64,000 nucleotides of DNA. It comes from Bacteroidota bacterium. Lineage in GTDB: Bacteria > Bacteroidota > Bacteroidia > JACCXN01. Shown piece by piece: positions 24,994 through 42,120 of the stretch. The translations under genes were made by a program, and so were the position numbers. The notes beneath the pieces were generated by a model that made no database searches, had not been told where the DNA came from, and worked only from the letters and a program-made list of their open reading frames with translations. Numbering within the stretch: position 1 is the stretch's first letter; every line of letters begins with the position of its first letter. The stretch covers positions 62,001-126,000 of the forward strand of contig JACCXN010000020.1 of NCBI GenBank assembly GCA_013696965.1. The letters run 5' to 3'.

Positions 24994-24994
24994 T

Positions 24995-25477
24995 TTGAAA
25001 TTCTTTTTTTTTAAAATAACAAGTTTTGCCATTCTTTTTGTGATCGTTTTATCCTCATGCAATGATGAGCGGTTTTATGAAAAAAACGTAGCAATCCCCA
25101 ATGAATCCTGGGGAAAGAATGAGAAAATAGTATTTGAAGTTCAAGTGGATGATACCCTTGCTCAATATGATTTTTATATAAATGTGAGGAATTCAGGGGC
25201 TTATTCGTATGCAAATTTATTTGTGTTTCTGAATACTGTTTTTCCCGAAGGTGAACTGGCAAGAGATACATTGGAGATATTTCTTGCAGATCCTGCTGGA
25301 AAATGGCTTGGGCAAGGCTCCGGAGACATCTATGACAACAGGATATTATTTAAAAAACAAACCTCTTTTCCTGTAAAAGGTACTTATAAATTTGAATTTG
25401 AACATGCAATGCGTCAAGATGTACTTCCGGATATTATAGATATTGGGATGCGAATTGAAAAAAGCGACAAAAAATAA
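24995..25477 (+). CDS. gldH: Gliding motility lipoprotein GldH
   Basis: A 160-residue lipoprotein. I place the start at the TTG at 24995, one base after the upstream stop, because LKFFFFKITSFAILFVIVL runs straight into the lipobox LSSC. Longer in-frame starts lie inside the PSP1 gene and would bury the signal. The mature protein matches GldH in length and sequence features (FYEKNVAIPNESWGKNEKI, DFYINVRNSGAYSYANL, GSGDIYDNRILFKK). GldH is required for gliding and T9SS function in Flavobacterium. The order PSP1-gldH-PBP1A fits other Bacteroidota genomes as I recall them. Confidence 0.88.
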   Translation: MKFFFFKITSFAILFVIVLSSCNDERFYEKNVAIPNESWGKNEKIVFEVQVDDTLAQYDFYINVRNSGAYSYANLFVFLNTVFPEGELARDTLEIFLADPAGKWLGQGSGDIYDNRILFKKQTSFPVKGTYKFEFEHAMRQDVLPDIIDIGMRIEKSDKK

Positions 25478-25527
25478 AATTTATTTTTTGAAATGATTAT
25501 TTTTAACCTTGGCATTTTTTGAAGCTT

Positions 25528-27774
25528 ATGAATAAAAAATTCTCCGGATATAGAAAATGGATTGTCCTTTTCTGGGTTTTTATCCTTTTCGTTATTGCAA
25601 TACCTGTACTCGTAATAAGCGGTGTAAATAATGGCTTATTCGGAGAACTTCCTTCTTTTGAAGAATTGGAAAATCCTAAAAACAATTTAGCTTCAGAAAT
25701 ATATTCGTCCGATAAAAAATTATTGGGTAAATATTATATACAAAACCGTACTACTATTCCTTACGAAGATATTTCACCCAACGTGTGTAATGGATTGGTT
25801 GCTACTGAAGATGTTAGGTTTTATAATCATTCGGGAGTAGATGCCCGAAGTTTATTTCGGGTGTTCTTTCGAACATTAATTGGGGGTGATCAAAATGCAG
25901 GGGGAGGAAGTACAATTACCCAACAACTTGCCAAAATGCTTTTTCATGACAGACCCCAGGGGAAAATGGAACGGGGCGTTCAAAAACTCAAGGAGTGGGT
26001 GATCGCAGCAAAGCTGGAAAGATTTTACACCAAGCATGAAATTATGGCCATGTACCTTAACCGCTTTGATTTTGTGAATAATGCCGTAGGAATAAAATCA
26101 GCAGCCAGAATTTATTTTAATACTACTCCTGATTCATTAAATATTCAGGAAGCAGCAATGTTGGTAGGGATGGCAAAAAATCCATCCTTTTTTAATCCAT
26201 TAAGAAGGCCGGAGGAAACCCAGCATAGAAGAAATGTGGTTTTGTACCAAATGGCAAGTTTTGATAATCCTCAAACCAATAAGCCATATCTTTCAAAATC
26301 TGAATTCGATTCTTTGAAAGTACTGCCCCTTGGGCTTGATTATAAAAAGGAAGATCACCTGGAAGGACTTGCTACTTATTTTAGAGAATACCTGAGGTTT
26401 GAATTGAAAAAATGGGCCAGTGAAAACAAAAAACCTGATGGTAGCTATTACAATATCAACACCGATGGGTTAAAAATATATACGACTATTGATTCTCGAA
26501 TGCAGCAATACGCAGAGGAAGCTGTTGCCCAACATATGGGAAAAGAACTTCAGGATGAATTTTTCAAGCACTGGAAAGGCAAAAAAAACGCTCCTTTTTT
26601 TCATCTTAATGATCAGCAAACTGAAAATCTCATGAATCAGTCTATGAAACGCTCAGAAAGATACAGGAACCTGGTAAATGAAGGAATTAATAAAGATTCT
26701 ATTTTGAAGAATTTTAACACTCCTGTCGAAATGGCCATTTTTTCCTGGAAAGGTGATATTGACACCCTGATGAGCCCAATGGATTCCATACTTTATTACA
26801 AGCATTTTTTAAGGACTGGGTTTATGTCTATGGATCCAAAAACAGGAGCTATAAAGGCCTGGGTAGGTGGAATAAATTCCCGCCATTTCTCTTATGATCA
26901 TGTAAAGCAGGGAAAACGACAGGTAGGCTCAACTTTCAAGCCTTTTGTTTATGCTCTTGCTATGCAGGAATTTTGGTCTCCGTGTTATAAAGTGCCAAAT
27001 GTGCCCGTTAGTTTTGAGTTGCCTGAGGGAAAAGTCTGGACGCCAAAAAATTCTGACGGTAAATATGGGGGGATGATGACTTTAAAGGAAGGCCTTGCAA
27101 CTTCTACCAATTCTATTACTGCATACATAATGAAACAGTTCGGTCCAGAGGCAGTTGTTACGCTTGTACGAAAAATGGGTGTTACAGCTCCACTTGATGC
27201 AGTTCCCTCGCTTTGCCTTGGAACTGCCGACATTTCTGTTTTTGAAATGGTGGGAGCAAATAGTACATTCGCCAATAAAGGGGTTTGGACTGAACCCAAT
27301 TTCATAACCAGGATTGAAGATAAAAACGGGAACGTGCTTAAAACATTTATCCCTCAACAAACAGAGGCTATGAGTGAGGAATCTGCATATCTTACTTTGA
27401 AATTGATGCAGGGAGTAGTTGAATCAGGAACGGGAACCAGGTTAAGATTTAGGTTTAAACTTAGCCCACCCATAGCAGGAAAAACGGGTACAACTCAAAA
27501 CAACTCCGATGGATGGTTCATAGGGCTAACTCCCGATCTGGTATCTGGTGTTTGGGTTGGTGGAGAAGACAGAAGCATACACTTTAGATCAACCCATTTG
27601 GGGCAAGGAGCCAACATGGCATTACCAATTTGGGCATTATACATGCAAAAAGTTTATGCTGATCCAACAATTACAATTTCCAAAGGTGATTTTGAGAGGC
27701 CAACCGGAAAGCTGGATGTTGAAGTGGATTGTGCAGCATATAAAATTCAGAACACGAAATCTAACTTTGAATAA
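25528..27774 (+). CDS. mrcA: Class A penicillin-binding protein 1A
   Basis: A 748-residue bifunctional peptidoglycan synthase. An N-terminal membrane anchor (IVLFWVFILFVIAIPVLVIS) is followed by a GT51 glycosyltransferase with ATEDVRFYNHSGVD (catalytic Glu) and GGGSTITQQLAKMLF, then KLKEWVIAAKLER. The transpeptidase has SxxK in GSTFKPF, SxN in STNS and KTGTT. The C-terminal tail is short. Start chosen at the ATG at 25528; a TTG three codons earlier is open. It follows gldH after 50 bp, and scoA begins 12 bp after its stop. Confidence 0.94.
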   Translation: MNKKFSGYRKWIVLFWVFILFVIAIPVLVISGVNNGLFGELPSFEELENPKNNLASEIYSSDKKLLGKYYIQNRTTIPYEDISPNVCNGLVATEDVRFYNHSGVDARSLFRVFFRTLIGGDQNAGGGSTITQQLAKMLFHDRPQGKMERGVQKLKEWVIAAKLERFYTKHEIMAMYLNRFDFVNNAVGIKSAARIYFNTTPDSLNIQEAAMLVGMAKNPSFFNPLRRPEETQHRRNVVLYQMASFDNPQTNKPYLSKSEFDSLKVLPLGLDYKKEDHLEGLATYFREYLRFELKKWASENKKPDGSYYNINTDGLKIYTTIDSRMQQYAEEAVAQHMGKELQDEFFKHWKGKKNAPFFHLNDQQTENLMNQSMKRSERYRNLVNEGINKDSILKNFNTPVEMAIFSWKGDIDTLMSPMDSILYYKHFLRTGFMSMDPKTGAIKAWVGGINSRHFSYDHVKQGKRQVGSTFKPFVYALAMQEFWSPCYKVPNVPVSFELPEGKVWTPKNSDGKYGGMMTLKEGLATSTNSITAYIMKQFGPEAVVTLVRKMGVTAPLDAVPSLCLGTADISVFEMVGANSTFANKGVWTEPNFITRIEDKNGNVLKTFIPQQTEAMSEESAYLTLKLMQGVVESGTGTRLRFRFKLSPPIAGKTGTTQNNSDGWFIGLTPDLVSGVWVGGEDRSIHFRSTHLGQGANMALPIWALYMQKVYADPTITISKGDFERPTGKLDVEVDCAAYKIQNTKSNFE

Positions 27775-27786
27775 AAATAGGGCAGT

Positions 27787-28479
27787 ATGAACAAAACAGT
27801 AAAGGACGCAGAAGCTGCTATTGCAGGAATAAAAGACAATATGACTTTAATGCTGGGTGGATTTGGATTATGTGGAATTCCAGAAAACTGCATTTCAGCA
27901 CTTGTTAAAAAAGGAATAATGGGATTAACCTGCATATCCAATAATGCCGGAGTTGATGATTTTGGATTAGGATTACTGCTACACAACAAACAAATAAAAA
28001 AAATGATTGCCTCTTATGTAGGAGAAAATGCGGAATTTGAAAGACAATTGCTAAGTGGGGAATTGGAAGTTGACCTGGTACCACAGGGAACCCTTGCAAC
28101 ACGTTGCATGGCCTCAGGATATGGAATACCTGCAGTATTTACACCTGCCGGAGTTGGTACTGAAATAGCCCAGGGAAAAGAAGTAAGAAACTTTAATGGA
28201 AAAGATTACTTACTTGAATTTGCTTTTGACGCTGATTTTGCAATCGTAAAGGCATGGAAGGGTGATACTCAGGGCAATCTAGTGTTCCGCGCAACTGCCA
28301 GAAACTTCAATCCACTTATGGCAATGGCTGGAAAAATAACCATTGCAGAAGTAGAAGAACTTGTCCCAGTAGGCCAACTGGACCCTGATTCCATACATAC
28401 TCCAGGCATTTTTGTTCATAGGATATTTCAGGGAAGTAACTATGAAAAAAGAATTGAGCAAAGAACCCTTAGAAGTTAA
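27787..28479 (+). CDS. scoA: 3-oxoacid CoA-transferase subunit A
   Basis: A 230-residue family I CoA-transferase alpha subunit, which with subunit B moves CoA between succinyl-CoA and 3-oxoacids such as acetoacetate. The glycine-rich CoA site is seen in MTLMLGGFGLCGIPENCI, with FTPAGVGTEIAQGKE and GKDYLLEFAFDADFAIVKAWK typical of this subunit. The end (YEKRIEQRTLRS) is complete. The partner scoB normally follows within a few bases, often overlapping; here it lies 10,150 bp downstream with glycosyltransferase genes between. Only 12 bp separate scoA from the PBP1A stop. Confidence 0.94.
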   Translation: MNKTVKDAEAAIAGIKDNMTLMLGGFGLCGIPENCISALVKKGIMGLTCISNNAGVDDFGLGLLLHNKQIKKMIASYVGENAEFERQLLSGELEVDLVPQGTLATRCMASGYGIPAVFTPAGVGTEIAQGKEVRNFNGKDYLLEFAFDADFAIVKAWKGDTQGNLVFRATARNFNPLMAMAGKITIAEVEELVPVGQLDPDSIHTPGIFVHRIFQGSNYEKRIEQRTLRS

Positions 28480-28610
28480 TGGATTTCTATATTTACATCT
28501 AAAATTAAAAAACATCCTGTTGAATTTCCAAAATTAATTGATACACTTGTTTTTATTACTATTTGTATTGCTAATAAAATAAATTCAGTCTGCCTTAAAT
28601 AAATTCCCTA

Positions 28611-30467
28611 ATGAATAAGCTCTCCGCTGGTGTTACCCTGGTATTATCCATAATCCTTGTAACCCTGATTGGACTTAACCCATACCCTAACACTATTTCC
28701 TGGGATGTTTTTGGGTATTACCTGTATTTACCTGCTGTGTTTATTTATCAGGATTTGGGTTTAAAGAATATTGAGGTAATTGAAAACATAATTCAAACTT
28801 ATAGCAGCACTTCTACTTTTTACCAGGCAACAAGATTGCCGGAAGGAGTATGGGTTTTTAAATACTCCATGGGCATGGCTGTTTTATATGCCCCGTTTTT
28901 TTTTATTAGTCATTTTTTAGCTTTATTTCTAGACTATGCTGCTGATGGATTCTCTCCTCCCTATCAATGGGGACTAATTGCCGGTAGCTTTTTTTACACT
29001 TTAGCTGGCCTTTACTTTTTACGAAAAGTTCTATTGAAATTTTTTAATGATCAAATTACTGCTATTGCACTTATTTTAATTGTTGTTGGCACCAATTACT
29101 TTCATATTGTGATTTACAGCAGTTTAATGCCACATAACTTCCTTTTCACTTTATACACTCTTGTTTTATGGTTTACCTTAAAATGGCATGAAACATTTAA
29201 AATTAAATATATTGTTTTGTGCGGAATAGTTTGCGGACTATGTATCCTGAGCAGGCCTTCAGAAATAGTTTGTCTTTTGATTCCTGCACTTTGGACAATA
29301 AACAATAAGGAAAGTTTTATTGAAAAAATACGGTTGTTACTAGAAAAAAAAGTTCAAATACTCTTGTTTTTATTGGTTGTATTTACAACCTGTTTGCCTC
29401 AACTTATTTATTATAAAATGATCACGGGCAAATTTTTGTATTCAAGTTATGGAAATTATGGCGAAGGAATGGAGTTTTTGAAGCCATATACCTTAGAAGT
29501 TCTATTTAGTTTCAGGAAGGGATGGTTTATTTATACTCCAATTATGCTATTTGCCATTATTGGACTATTTATGATGCTTAAAAACAAATGGAAACACAGC
29601 TTTGCTATAGTCCTGTTTACAATCGTTAATGTGTATATTGTTTCTAGCTGGTCATGCTGGTGGTATGCCGATAGTTTTGGCCAAAGAGCATTAATGCAAT
29701 CCTTTGCGGTACTTGCCTTGCCTTTGGGCTATTTTATCCTGTGGTTGAAAAGCAAGCAAATTTATCTAAAGGTTTTATCTTCTATTGCTTTTGGTTTTTT
29801 CATTTTATTGAACTTGTTTCAAACCTGGCAAATCAATAATTATATTATTCATTCCTCCAGGATGACTTTTTCCTATTATCTCAAAGTGTTTGGAAAAACA
29901 ACAGTTCAGGAAGAGGACAAAAAACTATTATTGGTGAATAGATTTTTTATTGGAGATGAAACGGTGCAAAACGAAGATGAATTTGCCAAAACTACGCTTG
30001 GTTTTATTGATTTTGAAAAGAATAAAACATATGAACTGAGTTATGAAAAACACCGGAAATATGTATTATCCAAAAAACAGTATTTTTCAGGAAATACCTC
30101 ATTAAAGTTAGATAGCAACAATATTTTTTCTCCAAAATATGAAATAACCTACAAGGATCTCACAGACAAAGAATATGCATGGATAAGAGTTTCTGCAATG
30201 ATTTATCCCACAGCAGATTTAAAAAACGATCCGGCAAGTATTGTAATTACTTTTAAGCATAAATGGAACAATTATAAATATGCTGCATTAAATTTTGAAA
30301 ATCTACCCCATTTAGAATTAAACAAATGGAACAAAGTAAGTTTTGATTACCTTACACCTGAGGTAAGGAAAAAAAGTGACAACTTAAGTGTTTATGCATG
30401 GAATAGAGGGAAGAAAAACATATACATTGATGACCTGAAAATTGATGTTTTTGAACCAAAAAATTAA
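28611..30467 (+). CDS. Polytopic GT-C-like membrane protein with C-terminal beta domain
   Basis: A 618-residue protein with about 10-11 predicted membrane helices (residues 1-420) and a soluble C-terminal region (about 460-618). The membrane part begins with an acidic first-loop motif (NPYPNTISWDVFGYYLYLP), as in GT-C glycosyltransferases, and has SFRKGWFIYTPIMLF before the last helices. The C-terminal part is beta-rich (NKWNKVSFDYLTPEVRK, VYAWNRGKKNIYIDDLKI) and resembles a carbohydrate-binding sandwich. It is a paralog of the protein at 42338-43780, and its C-terminal domain recurs in the protein at 36171-38177. Probably transfers a sugar from a polyprenyl phosphate donor; substrate unknown. 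Confidence 0.7.
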   Translation: MNKLSAGVTLVLSIILVTLIGLNPYPNTISWDVFGYYLYLPAVFIYQDLGLKNIEVIENIIQTYSSTSTFYQATRLPEGVWVFKYSMGMAVLYAPFFFISHFLALFLDYAADGFSPPYQWGLIAGSFFYTLAGLYFLRKVLLKFFNDQITAIALILIVVGTNYFHIVIYSSLMPHNFLFTLYTLVLWFTLKWHETFKIKYIVLCGIVCGLCILSRPSEIVCLLIPALWTINNKESFIEKIRLLLEKKVQILLFLLVVFTTCLPQLIYYKMITGKFLYSSYGNYGEGMEFLKPYTLEVLFSFRKGWFIYTPIMLFAIIGLFMMLKNKWKHSFAIVLFTIVNVYIVSSWSCWWYADSFGQRALMQSFAVLALPLGYFILWLKSKQIYLKVLSSIAFGFFILLNLFQTWQINNYIIHSSRMTFSYYLKVFGKTTVQEEDKKLLLVNRFFIGDETVQNEDEFAKTTLGFIDFEKNKTYELSYEKHRKYVLSKKQYFSGNTSLKLDSNNIFSPKYEITYKDLTDKEYAWIRVSAMIYPTADLKNDPASIVITFKHKWNNYKYAALNFENLPHLELNKWNKVSFDYLTPEVRKKSDNLSVYAWNRGKKNIYIDDLKIDVFEPKN

Positions 30468-30607
30468 AAAAAACTTCAATAATGAAAATGAATAGGCAAA
30501 TTGTGTGATTTAAATAAAAACAATTCGTTTGAGTTATTAAAAGGCCCAAGACAATAGTGCAACAAAAGTGGTATAGGTTATTCTTATATTAAATAACAGA
30601 TAAAGTT

Positions 30608-30636
30608 TACATTTGTCAGCTTAAAATATATATTTG
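30608..30636 (+). promoter_or_regulatory. Two candidate -7 boxes before the GT2 gene
   Basis: TACATTTG at 30608-30615 and TATATTTG at 30629-30636 both match TAnnTTTG, and either would start transcription shortly before the ATG at 30655. No good -33 partner is seen. The preceding 140 bp (30468-30607) hold no gene. Confidence 0.35.
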
Positions 30637-30654
30637 CATAGTAAATTATTAAAA

Positions 30655-31389
30655 ATGTTCTATTATAAAAAATGGGCCATCGTTGTTCCTTTGGCTAATG
30701 AGGAAGCAGATTTTAAACCATTCATTGAAATGGTGAATTTGGTGATAAATGAATTGAACCCAGGAAATGTTTATTTCATAGTTGATAAAGCTTCAAAAGA
30801 CAGGACTCTTGAGCTGTGCCAGGAACTGTCAGCCAGGGATCCAAAATATGTTACTGTATGGGCGCCTGAGAACAAGAATGTTGTAGATGCTTATGTTAAA
30901 GGATTGCGTGTTGCATACGAAGCAGGTCATGAAATAATTATTGAAATGGATGCAGGATTATCCCACGATCCGAGAGCAATTCCAATGTTTTTGCGTGTAT
31001 TGAATGAAGGAAATGAATGTGCATTCGGAAGCAGGTTTATAAATGGAGGTTCTATGGGGGATTCGCCATTTAAACGTAGATTTCTTTCAAAAACGGGAAC
31101 CTTTCTTGCCAATTTTTTACTTGGAACTTCATTAAGGGACATGACCTCAGGATACCAGGGATTCCATAGGGATGTGGTGGCTAAAATAATAGATCATAAG
31201 TTTAGATCAAAAGCTCATTTTTACCAAACCGAATTGCGTTATTTGTTGCGAAATAGAAGAATTTTCGAAGTTCCAATACATTACCAGGCACCTTCACCGC
31301 GTGTTTCAAAAAATGCAATAAAAAATGCCTATCAGTCCTTGTTTTATTATTTCTTTCAACGATTAACTGGAAATAAACCAACACTATAA
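30655..31389 (+). CDS. Glycosyltransferase family 2, DPM1/polyprenyl-phosphate type
   Basis: A 244-residue GT-A enzyme. The nucleotide-sugar fold starts AIVVPLANEEADFKPFIEM, with YFIVDKASKDRTLELC and the metal-site region IIEMDAGLSHDPRAIPMFL. RFINGGSMGDSPFKRRFLS and DMTSGYQGFHRDVV fit dolichol-phosphate mannosyltransferase-like enzymes, which load a sugar onto a polyprenyl phosphate. No membrane helix at the C-terminus, so peripheral. It could supply lipid-linked sugar to the neighbouring GT-C proteins (inference). Start taken at the ATG at 30655; a TTG at 30634 is also in frame. Confidence 0.85.
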   Translation: MFYYKKWAIVVPLANEEADFKPFIEMVNLVINELNPGNVYFIVDKASKDRTLELCQELSARDPKYVTVWAPENKNVVDAYVKGLRVAYEAGHEIIIEMDAGLSHDPRAIPMFLRVLNEGNECAFGSRFINGGSMGDSPFKRRFLSKTGTFLANFLLGTSLRDMTSGYQGFHRDVVAKIIDHKFRSKAHFYQTELRYLLRNRRIFEVPIHYQAPSPRVSKNAIKNAYQSLFYYFFQRLTGNKPTL

Positions 31390-31440
31390 TGAATAGGGTA
31401 TACCCTGGTAATTAGTAGAATTTTCATTCCAAATAAATAT

Positions 31441-32448
31441 ATGTCAAAAACACTTATCATTACCTCAATTGCAAACGATCAAAATGCAATATTAAAACAA
31501 TTTGCAAAGGAATGCAAAGAACAAAACACGCCATTCATTGTAATTGGTGACACAAAATCACCGGAAAATTTCCAATTAGAGGGTTGTGATTACTGGAATG
31601 TTGAGCGTCAATTGGGCTTGCCTTTTGAACTGGCAAAAATCACCCCCACCCGCCATTATTCAAGAAAAAATTTGGGATATCTTATTGCCATAAAAAACGG
31701 GGCAACGGAACTGGTAGAAACAGATGATGACAATATTCCGCGTAAAGAATTTTGGGAACCAAAATCTCGTGAAGTAAAGAGCCATCAGTTTGAAAACAAG
31801 GGCTGGGTAAATGTATACCATTACTTTAGCAAGCAGATGATTTGGCCAAGAGGCTTTCCTTTGGAGGAGTTACAAAAAAAACAAATTGCACTTTCAGACC
31901 TGGAAAACAAAAGTACCCTGTGCCCTATTCAACAAGGCCTTGCTGATGAGAATCCGGATGTTGATGCAGTTTACAGACTTACTTACCCCCTGCCATTTAA
32001 TTTTGAATTAAAAGAACGCTTAGCATTAGGCAAAAACGCATGGAGCCCCTTTAACAGTCAGAATACCTATTGGTTTAAAGAAGCTTTTGCATTGATGTAT
32101 TTACCCTCGTATTGCAGCTTTAGGATGACCGACATCTGGCGCAGTTATGTTGCACAGCGTATAGCATGGGAATGCGGCTGGAGCATACTATATCACGAAC
32201 CTACAGTTTGGCAGGAGCGCAACGAACACAATTTGATGAAAGATTTTGAAGATGAAATTCCAGGATACACCAACAACTTTAATATTTGCAAAGAATTACA
32301 AGCACTTGATTTAAAGCCAGGCCAGGAAAACATCTACCCTAATTTAATAGCCTGTTATCAAAAACTAATTGATATGGGTGTGATTGGAAAAGATGAGATG
32401 ATATTGTTAAAAGCATGGATAAGCGACTTGAAAATAGTATTAAATTAG
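31441..32448 (+). CDS. STELLO/DUF288-like glycosyltransferase
   Basis: A 335-residue cytosolic protein matching the STELLO (DUF288) family: QLGLPFELAKITPTRHYSRK, then NLGYLIAIKNGATELVETDD with a triple-Asp DDDN metal site. WKNGWVNVYHYF-like elements follow (here NKGWVNVYHYFSKQMIWPRG). In plants STELLO proteins act in the Golgi on cellulose synthase assembly; the bacterial members are of unknown substrate. The gene starts 51 bp after the GT2 gene, and its stop is one base from the next gene's ATG, so the three form an operon. Confidence 0.75.
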   Translation: MSKTLIITSIANDQNAILKQFAKECKEQNTPFIVIGDTKSPENFQLEGCDYWNVERQLGLPFELAKITPTRHYSRKNLGYLIAIKNGATELVETDDDNIPRKEFWEPKSREVKSHQFENKGWVNVYHYFSKQMIWPRGFPLEELQKKQIALSDLENKSTLCPIQQGLADENPDVDAVYRLTYPLPFNFELKERLALGKNAWSPFNSQNTYWFKEAFALMYLPSYCSFRMTDIWRSYVAQRIAWECGWSILYHEPTVWQERNEHNLMKDFEDEIPGYTNNFNICKELQALDLKPGQENIYPNLIACYQKLIDMGVIGKDEMILLKAWISDLKIVLN

Positions 32449-32449
32449 A

Positions 32450-34138
32450 ATGATTCAATCCAAAATTAAAATCTATTCTGCTTTCGTTTTATTGATTATT
32501 CTTGTTTCTTACCCGCTTTTCTTAAACTTAGACAAACTAAGTGTAAGAATGTGGGATGAGGCTAGAAATGGAATTAATGCAATTGAAATGTTAGGAAATG
32601 GAAAGCTATTTGTAACCCATTTCGATGATCAGCCTGATATGTGGAACACAAAGCCTCCATTTATGATTTGGATGATTGCACTTTCCATGAAATTTTTTGG
32701 TGTAACTACATTTGCATTAAGATTCCCCTCTGTTCTGGCAGCTCTAACAATTGTTATATATGGTTTTTGGTTTGCAAGAAAATATATTCAATCAACAAAC
32801 CTTGGTTTTATATTTGGATTAGTTTTATGCACATCAATTGGATTCATTGATCATCATGCATCAAGAAATGGAGATTTCGACACAATGCTTGCAATGTGGA
32901 TATTCCTATATGTTACACAGTTTTTTCTGTTTTTAGAAAACAGAAAACAAATAAATTTAATACTTTTCTCCATTTTTTTTGGTCTGGCTTTACTTACCAA
33001 AGGAATTGCAGCATGCATGATTTTACCAGGCCTGGCAATTTATTTTTTTATCGATAAAAAGAATCTCACATTATTAAAGTCAGCAAATTTTTATGTATTC
33101 TCTTTTTTGGGCCTGCTAATTGGGCTCTCCTATTACATTATTCGGGAACAAATGAACCCTGGCTTTATTGAGATGGTAATTTTTAATGAAATAACAGGCA
33201 GATATGCTGAAACAAACGAAGGTCATTCGGGATCAATTTGGTTTTACTATGAATTATTAAGGGACTACCACTATAAGTTTTGGATATATTTTATTCCATT
33301 GGCACTAGTCCTGATCTTTTTAAGGGCAGATAAAAAATTAAAAAAAATAACAGCATTTATTTTTCTTCAGGCTATAGTATATTTTGCAGTAATTACTTTT
33401 TCAGATACAAAACTAGATTGGTACGACCTCCCATTATTTCCATTGTTTGCCCTAATAATAGCCGCTGGCTTTACTCAATTACAAATACAAATATCAGGTT
33501 TAAGTGTGTTGAAAAAATCTATTTTTAAACAATTTGTTTATCTATCAATAACGTCACTAATTTTTATTATTCCTCTGAAAAATATTTTTGCCACATCCAT
33601 TCAGTTTGAAAAAGAAACCTATTATCCTGAGACGTTTTATGGCGATTTTATAAATGAAATACATGCATTATTTCCCAATCAAAAAAATTTAAAGGTAACT
33701 TCCGAAGGTTACAATCCGCATCTAATCTTTTATATAAAAGAGAAAGAAATGCATCATTTGAATATTGAAATTGTTCAACCAACCAACCATGATTTTGTAC
33801 AAAATGACACAATTATGGTAACGGAAATGAAATTTTTTCCAACATTGAAGGAAGATTTGGTTTTAGATACTTTAATTATTGCTGAAGGTCCGAAATTATT
33901 GCTTCGGGTAATTTCCTATGATGAATACTTCAAAAACAAATATGTAAAACTATTTCTAAAAAAAGTTTCAGAAATTAATTCCGACAAGCAGTGGAACCAA
34001 GCAACAAAGCAAAAGGCTCTAAATAATAATGTAACCATAGAAAAACAAGTTATGCTGGAAGCATTGTGGTGTTTAACTAATGCTAAAGAAATTAGCCCTG
34101 AAGAACAAGATTCCATCAAAGTTAAATACAATTTTTAA
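32450..34138 (+). CDS. GT39/ArnT-type membrane glycosyltransferase
   Basis: A 562-residue polytopic protein with about 10-11 helices. The first periplasmic loop carries the WDEARNG motif (Asp-Glu as in PMT and ArnT enzymes), followed by WNTKPPFMIWMIALSMKFFG and HHASRNGDFDTML. LALLTKGIAACMILPGLAIYF is also typical. It should transfer a sugar from a lipid-phosphate donor to an acceptor outside the inner membrane. The soluble C-terminus (about 400-562) ends with a 40-residue motif shared with two other cluster proteins (WNQATKQKALNNNVTIEKQV). Translationally close to the upstream gene (1 bp gap). Convergent with the next gene. Confidence 0.85.
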   Translation: MIQSKIKIYSAFVLLIILVSYPLFLNLDKLSVRMWDEARNGINAIEMLGNGKLFVTHFDDQPDMWNTKPPFMIWMIALSMKFFGVTTFALRFPSVLAALTIVIYGFWFARKYIQSTNLGFIFGLVLCTSIGFIDHHASRNGDFDTMLAMWIFLYVTQFFLFLENRKQINLILFSIFFGLALLTKGIAACMILPGLAIYFFIDKKNLTLLKSANFYVFSFLGLLIGLSYYIIREQMNPGFIEMVIFNEITGRYAETNEGHSGSIWFYYELLRDYHYKFWIYFIPLALVLIFLRADKKLKKITAFIFLQAIVYFAVITFSDTKLDWYDLPLFPLFALIIAAGFTQLQIQISGLSVLKKSIFKQFVYLSITSLIFIIPLKNIFATSIQFEKETYYPETFYGDFINEIHALFPNQKNLKVTSEGYNPHLIFYIKEKEMHHLNIEIVQPTNHDFVQNDTIMVTEMKFFPTLKEDLVLDTLIIAEGPKLLLRVISYDEYFKNKYVKLFLKKVSEINSDKQWNQATKQKALNNNVTIEKQVMLEALWCLTNAKEISPEEQDSIKVKYNF

Positions 34139-34198
34139 AACTCTACTTTTTGAATTGCAACTTTAAAAGTAAAAATAGAAACTATTTTAAAACAGATA

Positions 34199-36106
34199 CT
34201 ATTTTTTCAGCTCTTCTTCTATAATCCATTTTGCGTCATAATATAAGGCTGTATCCAAACTTGTATTACTTTCTCTGGCTTTTAATTTAATCATTTCAAG
34301 CCATTCTGGGTTAGCTTTTATCTGAACGATTTTAATATTTATTTTTTCTTCTTTAGTGGTTCCTATTTGAATTACTGGATCAATTTTTAAAACATATCTT
34401 GCATCACCAATCAAAGCCTGCTCCTCGGAAACACCCTCCTTTTCAGCTCGTTCAATCACTGAATTATACCAATTGGGAGTGGCTTTTATTATTTCAATCA
34501 TATTTTGTGTTTTTCTTACATTATCAATTTCTATTAGCAATGCTTTAGGTAGAAATTTTGATGAAATATTGTCAACATTTAAATAAGCCCAATTATTAAT
34601 AAAATTAGTATTTTCATTTATTGAATCAATTTGAGCTTTATTCAAGCCTATTATTTCCAAATTATCTGTATGTTGTTTGTGTATAAGTATTTTGGTAATA
34701 GTACCATCTGTTTTCATGAAATAAGCAGGAGTACTTGAATAATCATAGGCTGCATTAGGAAAATACCTATTTAAGAATATTACTGGGTCCGGGTTGTAAA
34801 ATTTGGGATAATTTTCCAACACCCATACTGAAATGGGTTTTGGCACATTTGTGGACCAGTCATAATCACTTAAATTGTTGTGATAAATTACTGTTGCTAT
34901 TTGGGTTATAAGCGCAAAAGAAGCAATACTGATTTTTAACCTCAGGTTTTTAATTTCGTACAGCAAAAACGCAAAATGAACCAAAATCATTCCACTAAAG
35001 TAGGTAACATAACGATTTACAACAGACTGGCCATGATTCCAATTATCAATTGTTGCTGCAATGCAAACAGAAAATACAGTAAAAACCACTATTATTATTT
35101 CTAAAATATATTCCGGAGGTTTAGTTGTGAGAAATTTCCGAATAAGAAGGAAAATATATAAAAACAAAACAAGTGGAATTGCCAATATTGCGCCTTGATT
35201 AATATCAAAAAACAAACCCAAAACACGATTAACAGTTACATAGTCAAAACTTAAAGCCCCCTGATATTTAATAAGGTTTGTTTCACCAAAATGGTAGTAG
35301 TAGAACAAAGATGGACCAAGCACTATTATTGTGCTTAAGCCCAACTTTACTAGATTTTTAATATTAATTGGTGCTTTAATTAATGTATATACCGCTAAAC
35401 CAGCAATCAAAATAGCCATTGGCTGATTTTGCAATGCAGCAATAGACATTAAAAACAAACCCCAATAACGCCTTTCGGATAGGAATAAAAACAAACCCAA
35501 TGAAGAAAAACAAACTGTAAATACTTCTGGGTGTTGCCAGGATAAATACCAATAGTTTGTTGAAAAATAAAACATGAATACAAAGAGAGTTGTATATAGC
35601 TTATTAAATCCACTATATCTGAAGAATAAAAAACTACAAATAACAATCAACATTAAATTAGTGAGCTGATGGATAATTAATGGATTAAAATCCAATACAG
35701 CACAAAGAATACGGGAAGGCACATTAATTAAAGAGTATGCAAAGAAATGACAACTAAATTTTTTACCCTTTTCACTTACAAAAAAAGCATAATCGTAATC
35801 CAGAGGTTGATGATTCTTTTCTGAAACAAACTGCTGAGCTGCATCATAAGTTATTGCTTTTTCATTATTGGACCAGTCGGCAATTTTAGTGTATGCTTTT
35901 TTAAAGGTTTCAAAATCACCCTCTCTTACATCAGGTGAAAAATGATTGTAAAAAGCCTCTGTCATTATTGTATATTCAATTACATCCCCCGTAGGATAAA
36001 TTTTATCTTCACTTACTAGTCGAAAAACCCCAAGAATAAAAATAACAATTACAACAAGGGAGGAAATACTAATTAAATTGCTTTTTATATTTTTTATAAA
36101 TTCCAT
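34199..36106 (-). CDS. Polytopic membrane protein, putative GT-C glycosyltransferase
   Basis: A 635-residue protein with about 10-12 helices and a soluble C-terminus. After the first helix an acidic loop (YPTGDVIEYTIMTEAFYNHF) and a later HQPLDYDYAFF segment are compatible with a GT-C fold, but no family could be assigned firmly. The C-terminal 105 residues contain two copies of a W...A...DA motif: NWYNSVIERAEKEGVSEEQA at about 545-564 and EWLEMIKLKARESNTSLDTA at about 601-620. The same motif occurs in the proteins at 32450 and 39363. It is downstream of the 36171-38177 gene on the minus strand (64 bp apart). Confidence 0.7.
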   Translation of the reverse strand: MEFIKNIKSNLISISSLVVIVIFILGVFRLVSEDKIYPTGDVIEYTIMTEAFYNHFSPDVREGDFETFKKAYTKIADWSNNEKAITYDAAQQFVSEKNHQPLDYDYAFFVSEKGKKFSCHFFAYSLINVPSRILCAVLDFNPLIIHQLTNLMLIVICSFLFFRYSGFNKLYTTLFVFMFYFSTNYWYLSWQHPEVFTVCFSSLGLFLFLSERRYWGLFLMSIAALQNQPMAILIAGLAVYTLIKAPINIKNLVKLGLSTIIVLGPSLFYYYHFGETNLIKYQGALSFDYVTVNRVLGLFFDINQGAILAIPLVLFLYIFLLIRKFLTTKPPEYILEIIIVVFTVFSVCIAATIDNWNHGQSVVNRYVTYFSGMILVHFAFLLYEIKNLRLKISIASFALITQIATVIYHNNLSDYDWSTNVPKPISVWVLENYPKFYNPDPVIFLNRYFPNAAYDYSSTPAYFMKTDGTITKILIHKQHTDNLEIIGLNKAQIDSINENTNFINNWAYLNVDNISSKFLPKALLIEIDNVRKTQNMIEIIKATPNWYNSVIERAEKEGVSEEQALIGDARYVLKIDPVIQIGTTKEEKINIKIVQIKANPEWLEMIKLKARESNTSLDTALYYDAKWIIEEELKK

Positions 36107-36170
36107 TCTTTTTCGAATTACTAATTATTTACTTACTTTATTTTAAAAAAAATGCATCAAAATTTGAACT

Positions 36171-38177
36171 CTAAAACTCACCTTTTTGTATAACAACTTT
36201 AAAATTTTCAATGTAAAAATTCTCTTTAGCACGGTTCCAAACATATATTTTTAATTCCGCATCATCAGAAATACCGCTAGGCAAGTTTGCTATTAAAGAA
36301 ATATTATTCCAGTTATTTGGCACCTTCATTTTTTCCAGAACAATTAAATCAGCTCTGAACAAGGATTCCCCATCTTTTTCAACTGAAATAACCATATGTC
36401 CGATTGATTTTTTTTCATTATAAACTAAAGCGTTTATTGAAATGGCTGTTTTTCCATTCAATTCACTTATTTTTTTTACTATTCCCGGGCTAAACTGATT
36501 TTGTTCATTAATTAAATAAGATGCCCTTCCAGTATCAGTGAATATAATTGAAGGGTTATCTATATTACAACCTGCATTCATAAAGGAAGAATGAAAAACA
36601 AGACAAGAATCACCCTTAACATTCTTGCCAATAAAGCTTTTTACCAAATCACAGGGATTGTCTGAGACATCTGCAATAATTTCAATTGGATTACAAGCTA
36701 ACTCATTTTTTACAAATACAGTGTAGCCTGTACTGATTCTCTTGTAATAGCTGCATTCTTTAAATCCTTTACTTACAATAAATTCTTCTATTTTATGGTC
36801 AGGATCCTGAAATTGCGAATGAGAATGAACATAAATAACTTTATTTATAGTATCGTAATTTAAATTTTCCCATCCATACAAAGGACACTTCTCACAATAG
36901 TAAACATTGTTTTTTGCCAACATTTCAGCCGATTTTGAATAATTCCTAAAGGATTCGTAATCGTAATAAAAAGCAAAATCCATGTATTTATAAGTGGCGG
37001 AAATAAAAATAACCGTATTCTTATCCTGCTTACTTTTTACAACCGGAACCATTCTTTTCCAATCATCTTCGCGTTCCTGCGTAATTTCAAAAGAAGTGAG
37101 TATCAATAAAGCAAAAGGGATAATAAATAAGAACTTATAAAGAAATTTCATTTTTAGATTTGAAAAAAAGTAAGCAATGCACAAAAACAAACCAATGGTG
37201 GTATACAAAATATACCTTGCATGGAATACCGGGGTTTTCTGAGAAACAATAAAATCCAGAACTATGGGCAGGATATACAGTGTTACAAAAACAAAGTAGT
37301 GTTTGCGATTAAACTCCATGCTAAGAACCTTCAGCTGATTGTTGAAAACAACAATCAAAAATGAAAGCGAAACAAATGCACTAAAAACATAAAACAAAGT
37401 TTCACTTCCCGAAAGAACATTTGTATGGTATCTAAATGCATCAAAATTTGGAGCTATGTTCCAAAAAGAGCCTTCTTTGGGAACATTGGATAAGAGTATA
37501 GAAACCCAGGGCAAAAAAGAAATTACAAGGAATATTTGACTAACAAAATAATAAACAAAAGCTTTTCTGTTTTCTTTAAAATATCCCCAAATAAAAACAA
37601 ACTGAACAACAAGAATAAAAACAGAAAGGTAATGCGTAAAGAGTAAAGACAAATTAATTAACCACAAAAAAATAACATCGCTCTTTTTGGGCTTAGTAAG
37701 CAAATTGAAATAAATATAAAATGAAGAAATGCACAACAATTGAATAAGGGCATAAGGCCTTACCTCTGTAGAGAAATAGTGCTGGGAATTGGAAAACAAA
37801 AACAAGAAAAAAGCAATTACTGCTGTTTGAATGTTCAAAAACTTTTTGGCAAATAAAAATAAAATAAGGCCTGCAAAAACACTACATGCAACAGATAACA
37901 TTTTAGAAGCTATTTCTGTTACTCCGAAAATTTCCATCCAAAAATGCAACAAAGCAATGTGCATGGGTGGGTTTTGATCATTTAAAAATATTACTTTTAG
38001 TTCAGATAGCGATTTTTGACCATGAAACACACTATACATCTCATCGCCATATAAGCTCTCCAGAGAAAGGCCATATGTACGAATAAACAGTGATAGTAAA
38101 AACAAAAAAAACAACAGTAAAAAGAATATTAATTTACTATTTAATCCTTGTTTTTTATTTGTTGGAATTTCACCCAT
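36171..38177 (-). CDS. GT39-type membrane glycosyltransferase with C-terminal beta domain
   Basis: A 668-residue polytopic protein starting at the ATG at 38177 (MGEIPTNKKQG); the frame is open to a GTG at 38204. The first loop RTYGLSLESLYGDEMYSVFH contains the Asp-Glu pair of GT39 enzymes, with NDQNPPMHIALLHFWMEIFG following, a common pattern. About 11 helices fill residues 1-390. The C-terminal soluble part ends with a beta domain (NNWNNISLIANLPSG, IYVWNRAKENFYIENFKVV) homologous to that of the protein at 28611. It may glycosylate a lipid or surface polymer; the substrate is unknown. Confidence 0.82.
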   Translation of the reverse strand: MGEIPTNKKQGLNSKLIFFLLLFFLFLLSLFIRTYGLSLESLYGDEMYSVFHGQKSLSELKVIFLNDQNPPMHIALLHFWMEIFGVTEIASKMLSVACSVFAGLILFLFAKKFLNIQTAVIAFFLFLFSNSQHYFSTEVRPYALIQLLCISSFYIYFNLLTKPKKSDVIFLWLINLSLLFTHYLSVFILVVQFVFIWGYFKENRKAFVYYFVSQIFLVISFLPWVSILLSNVPKEGSFWNIAPNFDAFRYHTNVLSGSETLFYVFSAFVSLSFLIVVFNNQLKVLSMEFNRKHYFVFVTLYILPIVLDFIVSQKTPVFHARYILYTTIGLFLCIAYFFSNLKMKFLYKFLFIIPFALLILTSFEITQEREDDWKRMVPVVKSKQDKNTVIFISATYKYMDFAFYYDYESFRNYSKSAEMLAKNNVYYCEKCPLYGWENLNYDTINKVIYVHSHSQFQDPDHKIEEFIVSKGFKECSYYKRISTGYTVFVKNELACNPIEIIADVSDNPCDLVKSFIGKNVKGDSCLVFHSSFMNAGCNIDNPSIIFTDTGRASYLINEQNQFSPGIVKKISELNGKTAISINALVYNEKKSIGHMVISVEKDGESLFRADLIVLEKMKVPNNWNNISLIANLPSGISDDAELKIYVWNRAKENFYIENFKVVIQKGEF

Positions 38178-38293
38178 TGTTGACAAATATTCTCGTGGAA
38201 TCACCCTTATGGGTATTTCTTAATGGTCTGCAATACTCTATATTATCACAAACATAGTATTATTTTTTTTGTTTACACAGGAAACAAATATTC

Positions 38294-38624
38294 ATGAATT
38301 ACAATTCACAATTACTTAACTGGAATTTGAGGATAAGCAGGGGACTAATAACTATCTTATTTTTCAAGGAATTAGCTGTTCATACATTTATACTACAATT
38401 TGAATTTTTGCAGTTATTAATGAAAATTAGGCTTAAAATAAAGAAACAGGCAACAAAGAGTTTTGAAAATTCAATGAATTTAGAGTTAAATAAATGTAAT
38501 AAAGTTAGTTTTGACTACCTTTCCGCTGAATTCAGATAAAACTGCCTAAAAAAATAAAACCGGTAAAAATCAGAATATTTTCATCCCTGATTATAAAATT
38601 GATATTTTTGAACCACAAAATTAA
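38294..38624 (+). pseudogene. Decayed 3' fragment of a GT-C-like gene before scoB
   Basis: The stretch 38467-38624 is homologous to 30300-30467, the 3' end of the membrane protein gene at 28611. One frame encodes LELNKCNKVSFDYLSAEFR, matching LELNKWNKVSFDYLTPEVR. After a stop and a frameshift, a second frame gives [18 protein letters not shown], matching the parent C-terminus KNIYIDDLKIDVFEPKN, with a stop at the same place (38622-38624). The part before 38467 is open but I cannot align it. The scoB ATG lies 5 bp after the remnant. It appears to be what remains of a second copy of that gene. Confidence 0.7.
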
Positions 38625-38629
38625 TTAAA

Positions 38630-39289
38630 ATGCCTTTAGATAAGAACGGAATTGCCAAACGCATTGCCCAGGAAGTAAAAGACGGTTTCTATGTAAATTT
38701 AGGAATTGGAATACCTACCTTGGTAGCAAATTATATCCCTGAAGGAGTTGATGTTATACTTCAATCAGAAAATGGCTTATTGGGAATGGGCCCTTTTCCT
38801 TTTGCAGGAGAAGAAGATCCTGATTTGATAAATGCCGGAAAACAAACCATTACAACAATTCCTGGATCTGCTTTTTTTGATTCAGCCATGAGTTTTGGAA
38901 TGATTCGCGCAGGGAAAGTTGACCTTACCATTCTTGGAGCAATGGAGGTGAGTGAAACAGGAGATATTGCCAATTGGAAAATACCGGGAAAAATGGTAAA
39001 AGGTATGGGAGGTGCAATGGATTTAGTAGCTTCGGCCAAAAACATTATTGTTGCCATGCAACATATTAATAAGGCCGGGGAATCAAAATTACTTCCAAGT
39101 TGTTCCCTTCCACTTACGGGAGTTAAGTGTGTAAAAAAAATTGTCACAGAATTGGCTGTAATTGATGTTACTCCCCAAGGTTTTAAACTTATTGAAAGGG
39201 CGCCAGGAGTATCTGTGGAAGAAATAGTAAAAGCCACAGCTGGAAAATTAATCGTTGAAGGAGAAATTCCGGAAATGAAAATTTTTTAA
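38630..39289 (+). CDS. scoB: 3-oxoacid CoA-transferase subunit B
   Basis: A 219-residue beta subunit of the CoA-transferase whose alpha subunit is at 27787-28479. [15 protein letters not shown] precedes the catalytic Glu47 in [10 protein letters not shown], which forms the glutamyl-CoA intermediate. [20 protein letters not shown] and [20 protein letters not shown] are conserved features. The sequence appears intact and full length. It is separated from scoA by 10 kb and directly follows the decayed fragment, so its transcription must start within or upstream of that fragment; I see no clear promoter. Confidence 0.94.
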
Positions 39290-39362: not shown

Positions 39363-41351
39363 ATGATCAAATTAATTCGTTTTAGTGCCCTATTTATTCT
39401 AATCGCACTTTTTGCCTCATGTAGTAATAGTCCTGAAATTTTAAATGTAAAATACAATTTAGGTGAACTTTCAAATGGAGTTATTCAAGCCGATTTATCG
39501 GGGGTAGTTACCAATGGGATAGAAATTCCAACAGAAAGGCAAACCGCTTCTGGCAATTTCGACATTTCATTTGAGGTAAAAGGAAGCAAAGGCCAGAATT
39601 ATTTTTACAAGATTTATTACCAGAACGAAAGTTACAAATTCCCTGAAATTGCTGATACTGCCCAAAATTACAATGCATTTGCAGATGAAAATTTCTATGG
39701 CTCTTGGAATGATCCATCTATAGGATTTAAAAAAGTGCCTGCAATTGATTTTACTATTAATGAATCCATAAAAATTATTGGCAATCCAAGAGACGAAAAA
39801 AAATATTATGGAATTCCATTCCAAAAAACGTATTACAGTGAGGAAGATATTCAAGCCGTAGGCAAAAACATAAGGGAAACACAAGACTGGTTTGCCGCCA
39901 TAGTTTCAAAAGCAGAAAAAAATAAATTAAGTATCGAAGAACAATTGCTTTTTGATGCTAAGTGGGTTTTGAAAAATGAAACCAGGGGAGAGCATGAAAA
40001 CAACCGGTGGAAAAGAAATCCAAGAATGGGCACTTACAGCCTTATGGTAGTAGTTACTACAGAGGAGGAACTAGCCAAGATCCCTAAACACATCCAATTT
40101 ATAAATGAACTTTCAGATAGCGGAATTTTCGTTTCTCCTTATTACTTTTTCAAATACAAAATAAACCCTGATTCTTTTCCTGATACAAAAGTATTTATTG
40201 ATAGCTCCTTTGTAAGGGTACAAGCTTCCATGGATGTTGCTGGGGGAATATGTGCCAATCCACTTGAATATCCCTCTTCAGAAAAAATGCCCGATGAAAA
40301 AGCGTGTGGTTGGAATAAGGATTTATTTAACAATGCACATTTCGGCCAGTTTTTTTCCTCCCTGAATAAAAACTTCCACTTAAATACAATACCTCTTATT
40401 CAAGACGTAAATGATTCCAGTTATACAAAGGATGAATATGATTCAGCAATAAAAAAATATTCAGAAAAACAATTTAAAAAAGATTACATAAGAAGTACTG
40501 AAAATCCGTGTAAATATGTAAGGTATAATGAAAATAAAAAAGCTATTGAGATTGTGAATCCCGGAAATGACAAGCTTGCAGATGCACACAAAGTTAATAT
40601 GGGGATTAAAACAAGAATAGGATTCACTTACGGAAAAATAACTGCTAAAATTAAATTCCCTGAACTGATAAATAAACATAACGTTTGGAATGGATTAACA
40701 AATGCCTTTTGGTTAATATACCAGGATGAACAGGAATGGAATAATCGCAGGGTTTGTAAAACAGGCTATTCCAAAAAGGGAGAAACCATAAATGATGCTC
40801 CAAGGATTTCTCAGACAAATTATTCAGAAATAGATTTCGAAATAGTAAAAACAAGCCCTAAATGGCCAATAGGTTATTACAAGGGGAGAATAAATGAAAA
40901 GGATGAATCGCAAAGTGATGATATTATTGTTGGATGCACTAACTGGGATTTAACCTGTAAGGATTGCAAAACATATACATGGGGAATTGATACGGTTGAA
41001 TATGAAAATAAAACTTTTGAAACAATGCGATGGGACAGTCATTATCAAGCCCTTACTACCCGAACTGCAGCAAAAGACAATGACTTATTCAAAAGCCCAT
41101 ATTACTACTACCAATTTGAATGGACTCCCAACCATATTATTTGGAGAATAGGACCGGAAAAGGATAAACTATCCGTTGTTGGATATATGAACAGTGATAT
41201 AACATCTATTCCCAACAATCAAATGATTGCTGTAATTACCCAGGAATACCACTTATCGGAGTGGTGGCCTCCTATAACCTTTAAGCAAGAATTCATTCCA
41301 TTTCCAAAAAATGATATAATAGGGGAAGTATATGAATTAACGATTGAATAA
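39363..41351 (+). CDS. Lipoprotein with GH16-like C-terminal domain
   Basis: A 662-residue lipoprotein. Signal and lipobox end in FASC (C20). The N-terminal part (about 25-140) is beta-rich. A helical W...KA...DAKW motif follows at about 166-206, shared with two neighbouring membrane proteins. The C-terminal part (about 385-662) looks like a concanavalin-A-type glucanase: GKITAKIKFPE, NAFWLIYQDEQEWNN, then SEIDFEIV, where E489-I-D491-F-E493 fits the GH16 catalytic pattern ExDxE, then YQFEWTPNHIIWRIG, the usual GH16 strand. So it may cleave or transfer a beta-glucan-like chain at the cell surface. Family assignment is by motif only. Confidence 0.65.
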   Translation: MIKLIRFSALFILIALFASCSNSPEILNVKYNLGELSNGVIQADLSGVVTNGIEIPTERQTASGNFDISFEVKGSKGQNYFYKIYYQNESYKFPEIADTAQNYNAFADENFYGSWNDPSIGFKKVPAIDFTINESIKIIGNPRDEKKYYGIPFQKTYYSEEDIQAVGKNIRETQDWFAAIVSKAEKNKLSIEEQLLFDAKWVLKNETRGEHENNRWKRNPRMGTYSLMVVVTTEEELAKIPKHIQFINELSDSGIFVSPYYFFKYKINPDSFPDTKVFIDSSFVRVQASMDVAGGICANPLEYPSSEKMPDEKACGWNKDLFNNAHFGQFFSSLNKNFHLNTIPLIQDVNDSSYTKDEYDSAIKKYSEKQFKKDYIRSTENPCKYVRYNENKKAIEIVNPGNDKLADAHKVNMGIKTRIGFTYGKITAKIKFPELINKHNVWNGLTNAFWLIYQDEQEWNNRRVCKTGYSKKGETINDAPRISQTNYSEIDFEIVKTSPKWPIGYYKGRINEKDESQSDDIIVGCTNWDLTCKDCKTYTWGIDTVEYENKTFETMRWDSHYQALTTRTAAKDNDLFKSPYYYYQFEWTPNHIIWRIGPEKDKLSVVGYMNSDITSIPNNQMIAVITQEYHLSEWWPPITFKQEFIPFPKNDIIGEVYELTIE

Positions 41352-41391: not shown

Positions 41392-42120
41392 GTGAACAAA
41401 GTCAAGAAACTTTCCATAATAATTCCAGCTTACAATGAGGCTGCTACAATTCATTTAATCCTCAATAAGGTATCAAAAGTTGAACTTGTGGATAACATGG
41501 AAAAGGAAATTATTATTGTAAATGATTGTTCCTCTGATAATACAGCTGAAGTTATAGAAAAATACATGCTTAACAATTCAGGTACTACCATTAGCTTGCA
41601 TAACCAGCCCTACAATCAGGGGAAAGGAGCTGCATTGCACAAAGGTATCAAACTTGCCTCTGGTGATTATGTAATTATCCAGGATGCCGATTTGGAATAT
41701 GATCCTGAAGAATACAATGTGTTGTTAAAACCCCTTATAAACGATGTGGCTGATGTTGTATACGGATCAAGATTTATTGGAGGAAAGCCGCACCGCATTC
41801 TTTTTTTCTGGCATACATTAGGGAATAAATTTTTAACTGCGCTTTCCAATATGTTCACCAATTTGAATTTAACGGATATGGAAACCTGTTACAAGGTATT
41901 TAGATCGGATATTATAAAAAACATTGATTTTAAGGAAAAGCGATTTGGTTTTGAACCGGAAGTTACAGCAAAAATTGCCAGAGTACCTAAGGTGCGCATT
42001 TATGAAATAGGAATTTCTTATTATGGCAGAACATACGAAGAAGGAAAAAAAATTGGATGGAAAGATGGTGTAAGAGCAATTTACTGCATTATGAAATACA
42101 ATATTTGGAATCGAAAATAA
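41392..42120 (+). CDS. Glycosyltransferase family 2, polyprenyl-phosphate type
   Basis: A 242-residue GT-A enzyme. [34 protein letters not shown] and the metal-site strand [20 protein letters not shown] are clear. [20 protein letters not shown] and [14 protein letters not shown] are typical of enzymes that pass a hexose to polyprenyl phosphate. No C-terminal membrane helices, so peripheral. The start codon is GTG at 41392; an in-frame stop six codons upstream excludes a longer form. It follows the GH16-like lipoprotein by 40 bp. Confidence 0.88.

What the first reader, a model, noticed from the sequence alone, without database searches (positions are those of the whole stretch)
27787..39289. 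scoA and scoB split by a 10-kb glycosyltransferase block
The two subunits of the CoA-transferase are almost always adjacent. Here intact scoA ends at 28479 and intact scoB starts at 38630, with six membrane or glycosyltransferase genes between. This looks like insertion of an accessory glycan locus into a metabolic operon while both halves stayed functional, which raises the question of how the two subunits are kept in balance.
Basis: partly seen in the sequence, partly recalled or inferred. Interest (0 to 1): 0.7.

Follow-up and report, generated by a model that had tools for sequence, protein, structure and literature searches.

The report
CoA-transferase genes split by glycosyltransferases
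In this Bacteroidia genome the genes for the two halves of one metabolic enzyme are separated by six sugar-transferase-type genes; this is real, but relatives show that splits between these two genes are common in the group, so it is an enlarged example of an ordinary gene-order change.

Summary
Intact scoA (27787-28479) and scoB (38630-39289) are the only CoA_trans (PF01144) genes in the genome and lie 10.15 kb apart, with four multi-TM GT-C-like proteins, one GT2 and one STELLO-like protein between them. 'Insertion into an ancestrally adjacent pair' is supported. 'Almost always adjacent' is not: of 114 Bacteroidia genomes with both genes, 64 have them under 300 bp apart, 33 have 0.5-4.2 kb between them, and 16 have them on different contigs, at least 11 of those 11 kb or more apart. 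Gaps above 1.2 kb mostly hold membrane GT-C enzymes; many small gaps hold a 23S-rRNA-IVP gene. Order turns over within genera.

Local history is readable: the 170 bp before scoB are a decayed tail of the GT gene that follows scoA. The likely path is scoA-GT-scoB, GT duplication, growth between the copies, decay of the distal copy. This also argues against misassembly. Two minus-strand genes in the block imply that scoB has its own promoter. One GT2/STELLO pair looks horizontally exchanged. No mobile-element machinery was found. Subunit balance is untested but need not be special. The block also carries an unnamed 36-residue repeat shared by three proteins.

The parts
25519..27774 (+). PBP1A (bifunctional transglycosylase/transpeptidase), last gene before scoA; PSP1 (23815-24993) and gldH (24863-25477) precede it
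   Evidence: Pfam PF00912 + PF00905; same order in many relatives
27787..28479 (+). scoA, 3-oxoacid CoA-transferase subunit A, starts 12 bp after PBP1A
   Evidence: TIGR02429 above cut-off; PDB 3rrl_A E=1.3e-94
28611..30467 (+). GTa, multi-TM GT-C-like protein (LA_3751/PMT_2-like, below cut-offs)
30634..31389 (+). GT2a, family 2 glycosyltransferase; pairs with the STELLO-like gene in several relatives
   Evidence: PF00535; pair conserved elsewhere in relatives
31441..32448 (+). STELLO-like glycosyltransferase
   Evidence: PF03385 39.5 bits against 27.8; 14 of 149 genomes
32450..34138 (+). PMT_2/ArnT-like membrane GT, with one copy of the 36-aa C-terminal repeat
   Evidence: PF13231 60.2 bits; repeat
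34199..36106 (-). GTb, multi-TM GT-like protein, two C-terminal copies of the repeat
   Evidence: NF047440 weak; repeat
36171..38204 (-). GTc, multi-TM PMT_2-like protein; C-terminal part related to that of GTa
   Evidence: PF13231 27.2 bits against 26.1
38461..38629 (+). Decayed 3' end of a GTa copy (stops, frameshifts); its original stop codon position ends 5 bp before scoB
   Evidence: 71-75% DNA identity; 57% aa over GTa 553-587 with one stop; alignment score 70 vs shuffle maximum 41, other locus genes 24-31
38630..39289 (+). scoB, 3-oxoacid CoA-transferase subunit B
   Evidence: TIGR02428 above cut-off; PDB 3cdk_B E=3.9e-80
39363..41351 (+). 662-aa putative lipoprotein of unknown family, one copy of the repeat
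   Evidence: no Pfam/NCBIfam/PDB match; homologues in 20 of 148 relatives
41392..42120 (+). GT2b, DPM-like GT2, about 70% identical neighbour of scoB in many relatives
   Evidence: PF00535
42338..43780 (+). GTd, multi-TM GT-C-like paralogue of GTa (36%)

Best explanation
This is a single, ordinary 3-oxoacid CoA-transferase whose two genes were adjacent in ancestors and became separated by local growth of a glycosyltransferase cluster that in many Bacteroidia already sits beside them (PSP1-gldH-PBP1A-scoA-scoB-GTs-GT2b). Likely steps: a GTa gene entered between scoA and scoB (scoA-GTa-scoB, the kind of arrangement several relatives show with other GT-C genes); GTa was duplicated; further glycan genes, including a horizontally shared GT2a/STELLO pair, accumulated between the copies; the distal copy decayed, leaving its tail against scoB. 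scoA is read with the upstream operon; scoB, cut off by two opposite-strand genes, is read from its own promoter in 38205-38629. The subunits meet in the cytoplasm as free proteins. Shown: anatomy, single pair, fossil tail, recurrence and within-genus turnover of splits. Inferred: order of steps, promoter, activity.
For: Single pair. Adjacent in G002 of the same family and in 64 of 98 same-contig genomes. Fossil GTa tail upstream of scoB. GT-C-like enzymes in the scoA-scoB gap in at least six other family groups. Within-genus turnover: g6 gaps 60, 625, 1966, 1966 bp; g39 103, 485, 545, 1254; g43 99, 2495, 4128. Minimum of 7 changes for GT and 15 for IVP states on an scoA+scoB tree, a tree with many weak branches. 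GT2a/STELLO 85-88% and 79-84% identical to family f21 but 62% and 61% to same-family G002, while PBP1A goes the other way, 59-62% and 71%. GC3 of block genes (0.24-0.37) largely overlaps that of flanking genes (0.26-0.34). No tRNA, transposase or integrase found in the locus.
Against: The order of steps rests on one 170-bp fossil; a tail from another, lost paralogue cannot be excluded. The scoA+scoB tree does not group G000 with G002, so the immediate ancestor's state is not firmly known. No Bacteroidota-consensus promoter match lies upstream of scoB (the pattern was not enriched over chance anywhere in the window). No expression data.
Confidence: 0.82

Rival explanations
1. The block entered as one horizontally acquired glycan island into a previously intact scoAB operon.
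For: GT2a/STELLO show discordant identity with the host's family; block genes have lower GC (0.30-0.38) than scoA/scoB (0.39).
Against: Low GC is shared by GTd outside the gap; GC3 overlaps flanks; no mobile-element or tRNA signature; the GTa fossil points to in-place duplication; the glycan genes continue past scoB; no relative with the whole block was seen, though only STELLO and the 662-aa protein were searched across the relatives.
Confidence: 0.12
2. The separation is an assembly artefact: a chimeric join between two contigs.
For: Draft genome of 106 contigs with 2% contamination estimate; no reads available.
Against: Both junctions are inside a 152-kb contig; the fossil GTa tail abutting scoB ties block to scoB; the 36-aa repeat is shared by genes on both sides of scoB and found nowhere else in the genome; analogous splits occur in many independent assemblies, including cultured isolates.
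Confidence: 0.03
3. The SCOT genes and the GT genes are functionally linked (metabolite or envelope coupling), so the association is selected.
For: GT-C/GT2 genes beside or between scoA and scoB in many Bacteroidia families.
Against: Gap contents are heterogeneous: ABC transporter, beta-lactamase, thiolase, GNAT, PIN, PD-(D/E)XK, IVP; many relatives have scoAB without GTs; the neighbouring PBP1A-scoA and gldH-PBP1A junctions are also interrupted.
Confidence: 0.1

Closest known systems
Bacterial two-gene succinyl-CoA:3-oxoacid CoA-transferase (scoA/scoB; PDB 3cdk, 3rrl)
   Same: Both subunits full length, above the NCBIfam cut-offs, conserved SENGLLG motif in subunit B
   Different: Genes 10.15 kb apart instead of next to each other
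PBP1A-scoA-[GT-C]-scoB-GT2b loci of other Bacteroidia (e.g. G006/L021, G090/L023)
   Same: Membrane GT-C-like enzyme(s) between the two subunits, GT2b and GTs downstream of scoB
   Different: Usually one GT of about 600 aa from another GT-C subfamily; here six genes, two in opposite orientation, plus a fossil copy
Widely separated scoA/scoB, e.g. Mucilaginibacter sp. PPCGB 2223 (L085) and G076
   Same: One intact copy of each subunit, not adjacent
   Different: On different contigs: scoB about 254 kb into a 2.49-Mb contig in L085; about 400 kb or more apart in G076

Membership tests
3-oxoacid CoA-transferase (scoA/scoB) | Subunit A and B each match their own curated family | tested here: met
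   TIGR02429 and TIGR02428 above cut-offs
3-oxoacid CoA-transferase (scoA/scoB) | Catalytic glutamate of subunit B in SENG motif | tested here: met
   [12 protein letters not shown] present in scoB and aligned with 3cdk_B; the role of Glu is from general knowledge
3-oxoacid CoA-transferase (scoA/scoB) | No alternative partner subunit in the genome | tested here: met
   Only two PF01144 matches
3-oxoacid CoA-transferase (scoA/scoB) | Enzyme activity of the assembled heteromer | not testable with these tools
   needs expression and assay
GT-C / PMT_2-type glycosyltransferases (four multi-TM block proteins) | Pfam PMT_2 match above the gathering score | tested here: inconclusive
   Met by 32450-34138 and 36171-38204; below cut-off for 28611-30467; none for 34199-36106
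Horizontally acquired genomic island | Integrase/transposase, tRNA or flanking direct repeats, composition shift | tested here: not met
   No such genes or tRNA; only sizeable direct repeat is GTa/fossil GTa; GC3 overlaps flanks

The most novel reading that the evidence does not exclude
The scoA-scoB junction of Bacteroidia is a preferred, repeatedly used landing or growth site for membrane glycosyltransferase genes and IVS-type small ORFs, tied to a real functional link between ketone-body CoA transfer and envelope glycosylation, with the uncharacterised 36-aa three-helix repeat as a shared docking module of the locus enzymes.
Probability: 0.1. Interest if true: 0.5.

Novelty: new member of a known kind. 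Interest (0 to 1): 0.25.

Why it matters
It corrects an assumption: in Bacteroidia, co-location of the two SCOT subunit genes is not a reliable rule, so annotation or pathway calls based on adjacency will miss cases. The many recent, independent splits of one obligate two-subunit enzyme make a natural series for asking whether operon adjacency matters for complex assembly; in solved heteromers generally, 711 subunit pairs came from different transcription units against 368 from the same operon (PMC4742563).

Tried and rejected
(1) A second scoAB pair with these two as unrelated subunits: rejected, only two PF01144 genes. (2) Misassembly: judged unlikely. (3) Mobile island: no signature. (4) Hot-spot claim: not established. 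PBP1A-scoA (8 of 51) and gldH-PBP1A (4 of 24) are interrupted too, and the locus set was enriched for scoA-scoB gaps, so the 30 of 52 there is biased; the fair figure is 34 of 98 same-contig genomes. (5) Promoter scans gave nothing above shuffled expectation. (6) Target-site duplications at the two junctions: only short A+T-rich similarity. (7) Literature searches found nothing on split scoA/scoB in Bacteroidota.

Full report
OBSERVATION. scoA (27787-28479) and scoB (38630-39289) match TIGR02429 and TIGR02428 well above cut-off and solved SCOT subunits with E-values of 1e-94 and 4e-80. Six genes lie between: four multi-TM proteins of the GT-C/PMT_2 kind (two above the Pfam cut-off, two not), one GT2 and one STELLO-like protein. 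The last two, 34199-36106 and 36171-38204, are on the minus strand.

SURROUNDINGS. Upstream is PSP1-gldH-PBP1A, with 12 bp between PBP1A and scoA. Downstream of scoB the glycan genes go on: a 662-aa putative lipoprotein, GT2b, GTd, then aspS on the other strand. So scoB lies inside a glycan cluster rather than at its far edge.

RELATIVES. In 149 genomes of the class, 114 have both genes in the listed matches. In 98 they share a contig: 64 with under 300 bp between the profile matches, 33 with 485-4168 bp, and the window's genome with 10.2 kb, the largest on one contig. In 16 they are on different contigs; for 11 of these the contig lengths force a separation of at least 11 kb and up to about 400 kb. 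A named isolate, Mucilaginibacter sp. PPCGB 2223 (L085), has scoA and scoB on different contigs, scoB about 254 kb into a 2.49-Mb contig with no scoA in the 10 kb upstream. The premise of near-universal adjacency therefore fails in this class. Turnover is fast: genera g6, g39 and g43 each contain both tight and interrupted members. On an scoA+scoB tree of 113 loci the GT-between state needs at least 7 changes (shuffled mean 12.6) and the IVP-between state 15 (shuffled mean 17.1); many branches are weak, so these are indications.

WHAT SITS IN THE GAP ELSEWHERE. Of 18 relatives with gaps over 1.2 kb, 13 hold a multi-TM GT-C-like protein, mostly one homologous family of about 600 aa, in families f4, f5, f9, f29, f41 and f46; the GT in G010 was seen, while the ORF picker listed a spurious antisense ORF there. 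The others hold an ABC transporter, beta-lactamase, thiolase, acyltransferases or an unknown lipoprotein. Gaps of 0.3-0.7 kb often hold a 23S-rRNA-IVP four-helix-bundle gene, 18 loci in all, including Flavobacterium and Pedobacter; others hold PD-(D/E)XK, PIN, GNAT or DUF4260 genes. GT2b follows scoB in many relatives, including the same-family G002, where scoA and scoB are adjacent. GT genes also appear between PBP1A and scoA and after scoB. I could not show that the scoA-scoB junction is hotter than its neighbours (a set biased towards scoA-scoB gaps).

HOW THIS SPLIT AROSE. The 170 bp before scoB align with the 3' end of GTa, the gene just after scoA: 71-75% identical in blocks, alignment score 70 against a shuffle maximum of 41 and 24-31 for other locus genes; a whole-genome search with GTa finds this spot at 57% amino-acid identity with a stop codon. 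The fossil's stop position ends 5 bp before the scoB start. The simplest reading is an ancestor scoA-GTa-scoB, GTa duplication, growth between the copies, and decay of the distal copy. GT2a and STELLO, a pair found together elsewhere in several relatives, are 85-88% and 79-84% identical to family f21 but only 62% and 61% to G002 of the same family, whereas PBP1A is 71% to the same family and 59-62% to f21: this pair was probably exchanged horizontally. No tRNA or mobile-element gene was found and GC3 is like the flanks. These features, and the sharing of a genome-unique repeat between genes on both sides of scoB, make a chimeric assembly unlikely, though no reads were available.

HOW IT WORKS. 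scoA almost certainly remains in the PBP1A operon. Transcription cannot simply run on to scoB through two opposing genes, so scoB most likely has its own promoter in 38205-38629 (inference; consensus scans were uninformative). Nothing suggests a special balancing device, and heteromers encoded by separate transcription units are common (PMC4742563).

SIDE FINDING. A 36-aa repeat (consensus IKSDPEWLKSIKEKAKENKISIEEQLYLDAKWVLEN) occurs twice in GTb, once in the ArnT-like protein and once in the 662-aa protein, nowhere else in this genome. It is found in 31 of the 149 genomes searched, the window's own included, mainly in membrane GTs, single-TM proteins and homologues of the 662-aa protein. The proteins carrying it have no Pfam match in that region. 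Two copies are predicted as three helices each (mean pLDDT 84, single sequence). PDB profile hits to designed armadillo proteins cover 14 residues only and are not informative.

VERDICT. A true observation with a partly right interpretation: the largest same-contig case in this sample of a common gene-order change in Bacteroidia.

Noticed in passing
34199-36106 (-), 32450-34138 (+), 39363-41351 (+): A 36-aa three-helix repeat shared by three otherwise unrelated proteins of the locus, unique to this locus in the genome, present in 31 of the 149 genomes searched (window's own included), mostly in membrane GTs, without a Pfam match.
   Followed up: partly
L034, L059, L064, L088, L110, L113, L117, L118, L130, L208-L214, L216, L033: A 23S-rRNA-IVP-like four-helix-bundle gene sits between scoA and scoB in 18 Bacteroidia loci (Flavobacterium, Pedobacter, Chitinophagaceae and others), apparently gained or lost many times.
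   Followed up: partly
31441-32448; L143-L153: STELLO-like protein has a patchy distribution (14 of 149 genomes) and is more alike in family f21 than in the window's own family; usually next to GT2a, suggesting a mobile two-gene module.
   Followed up: partly
39363-41351: 662-aa putative lipoprotein with no Pfam, NCBIfam or PDB match; homologues in 20 relatives, several within 10 kb of scoAB.
   Followed up: partly
L039 and window: scoA+scoB tree places same-family G002 away from the window's genome, hinting at transfer or weak signal.
   Followed up: no
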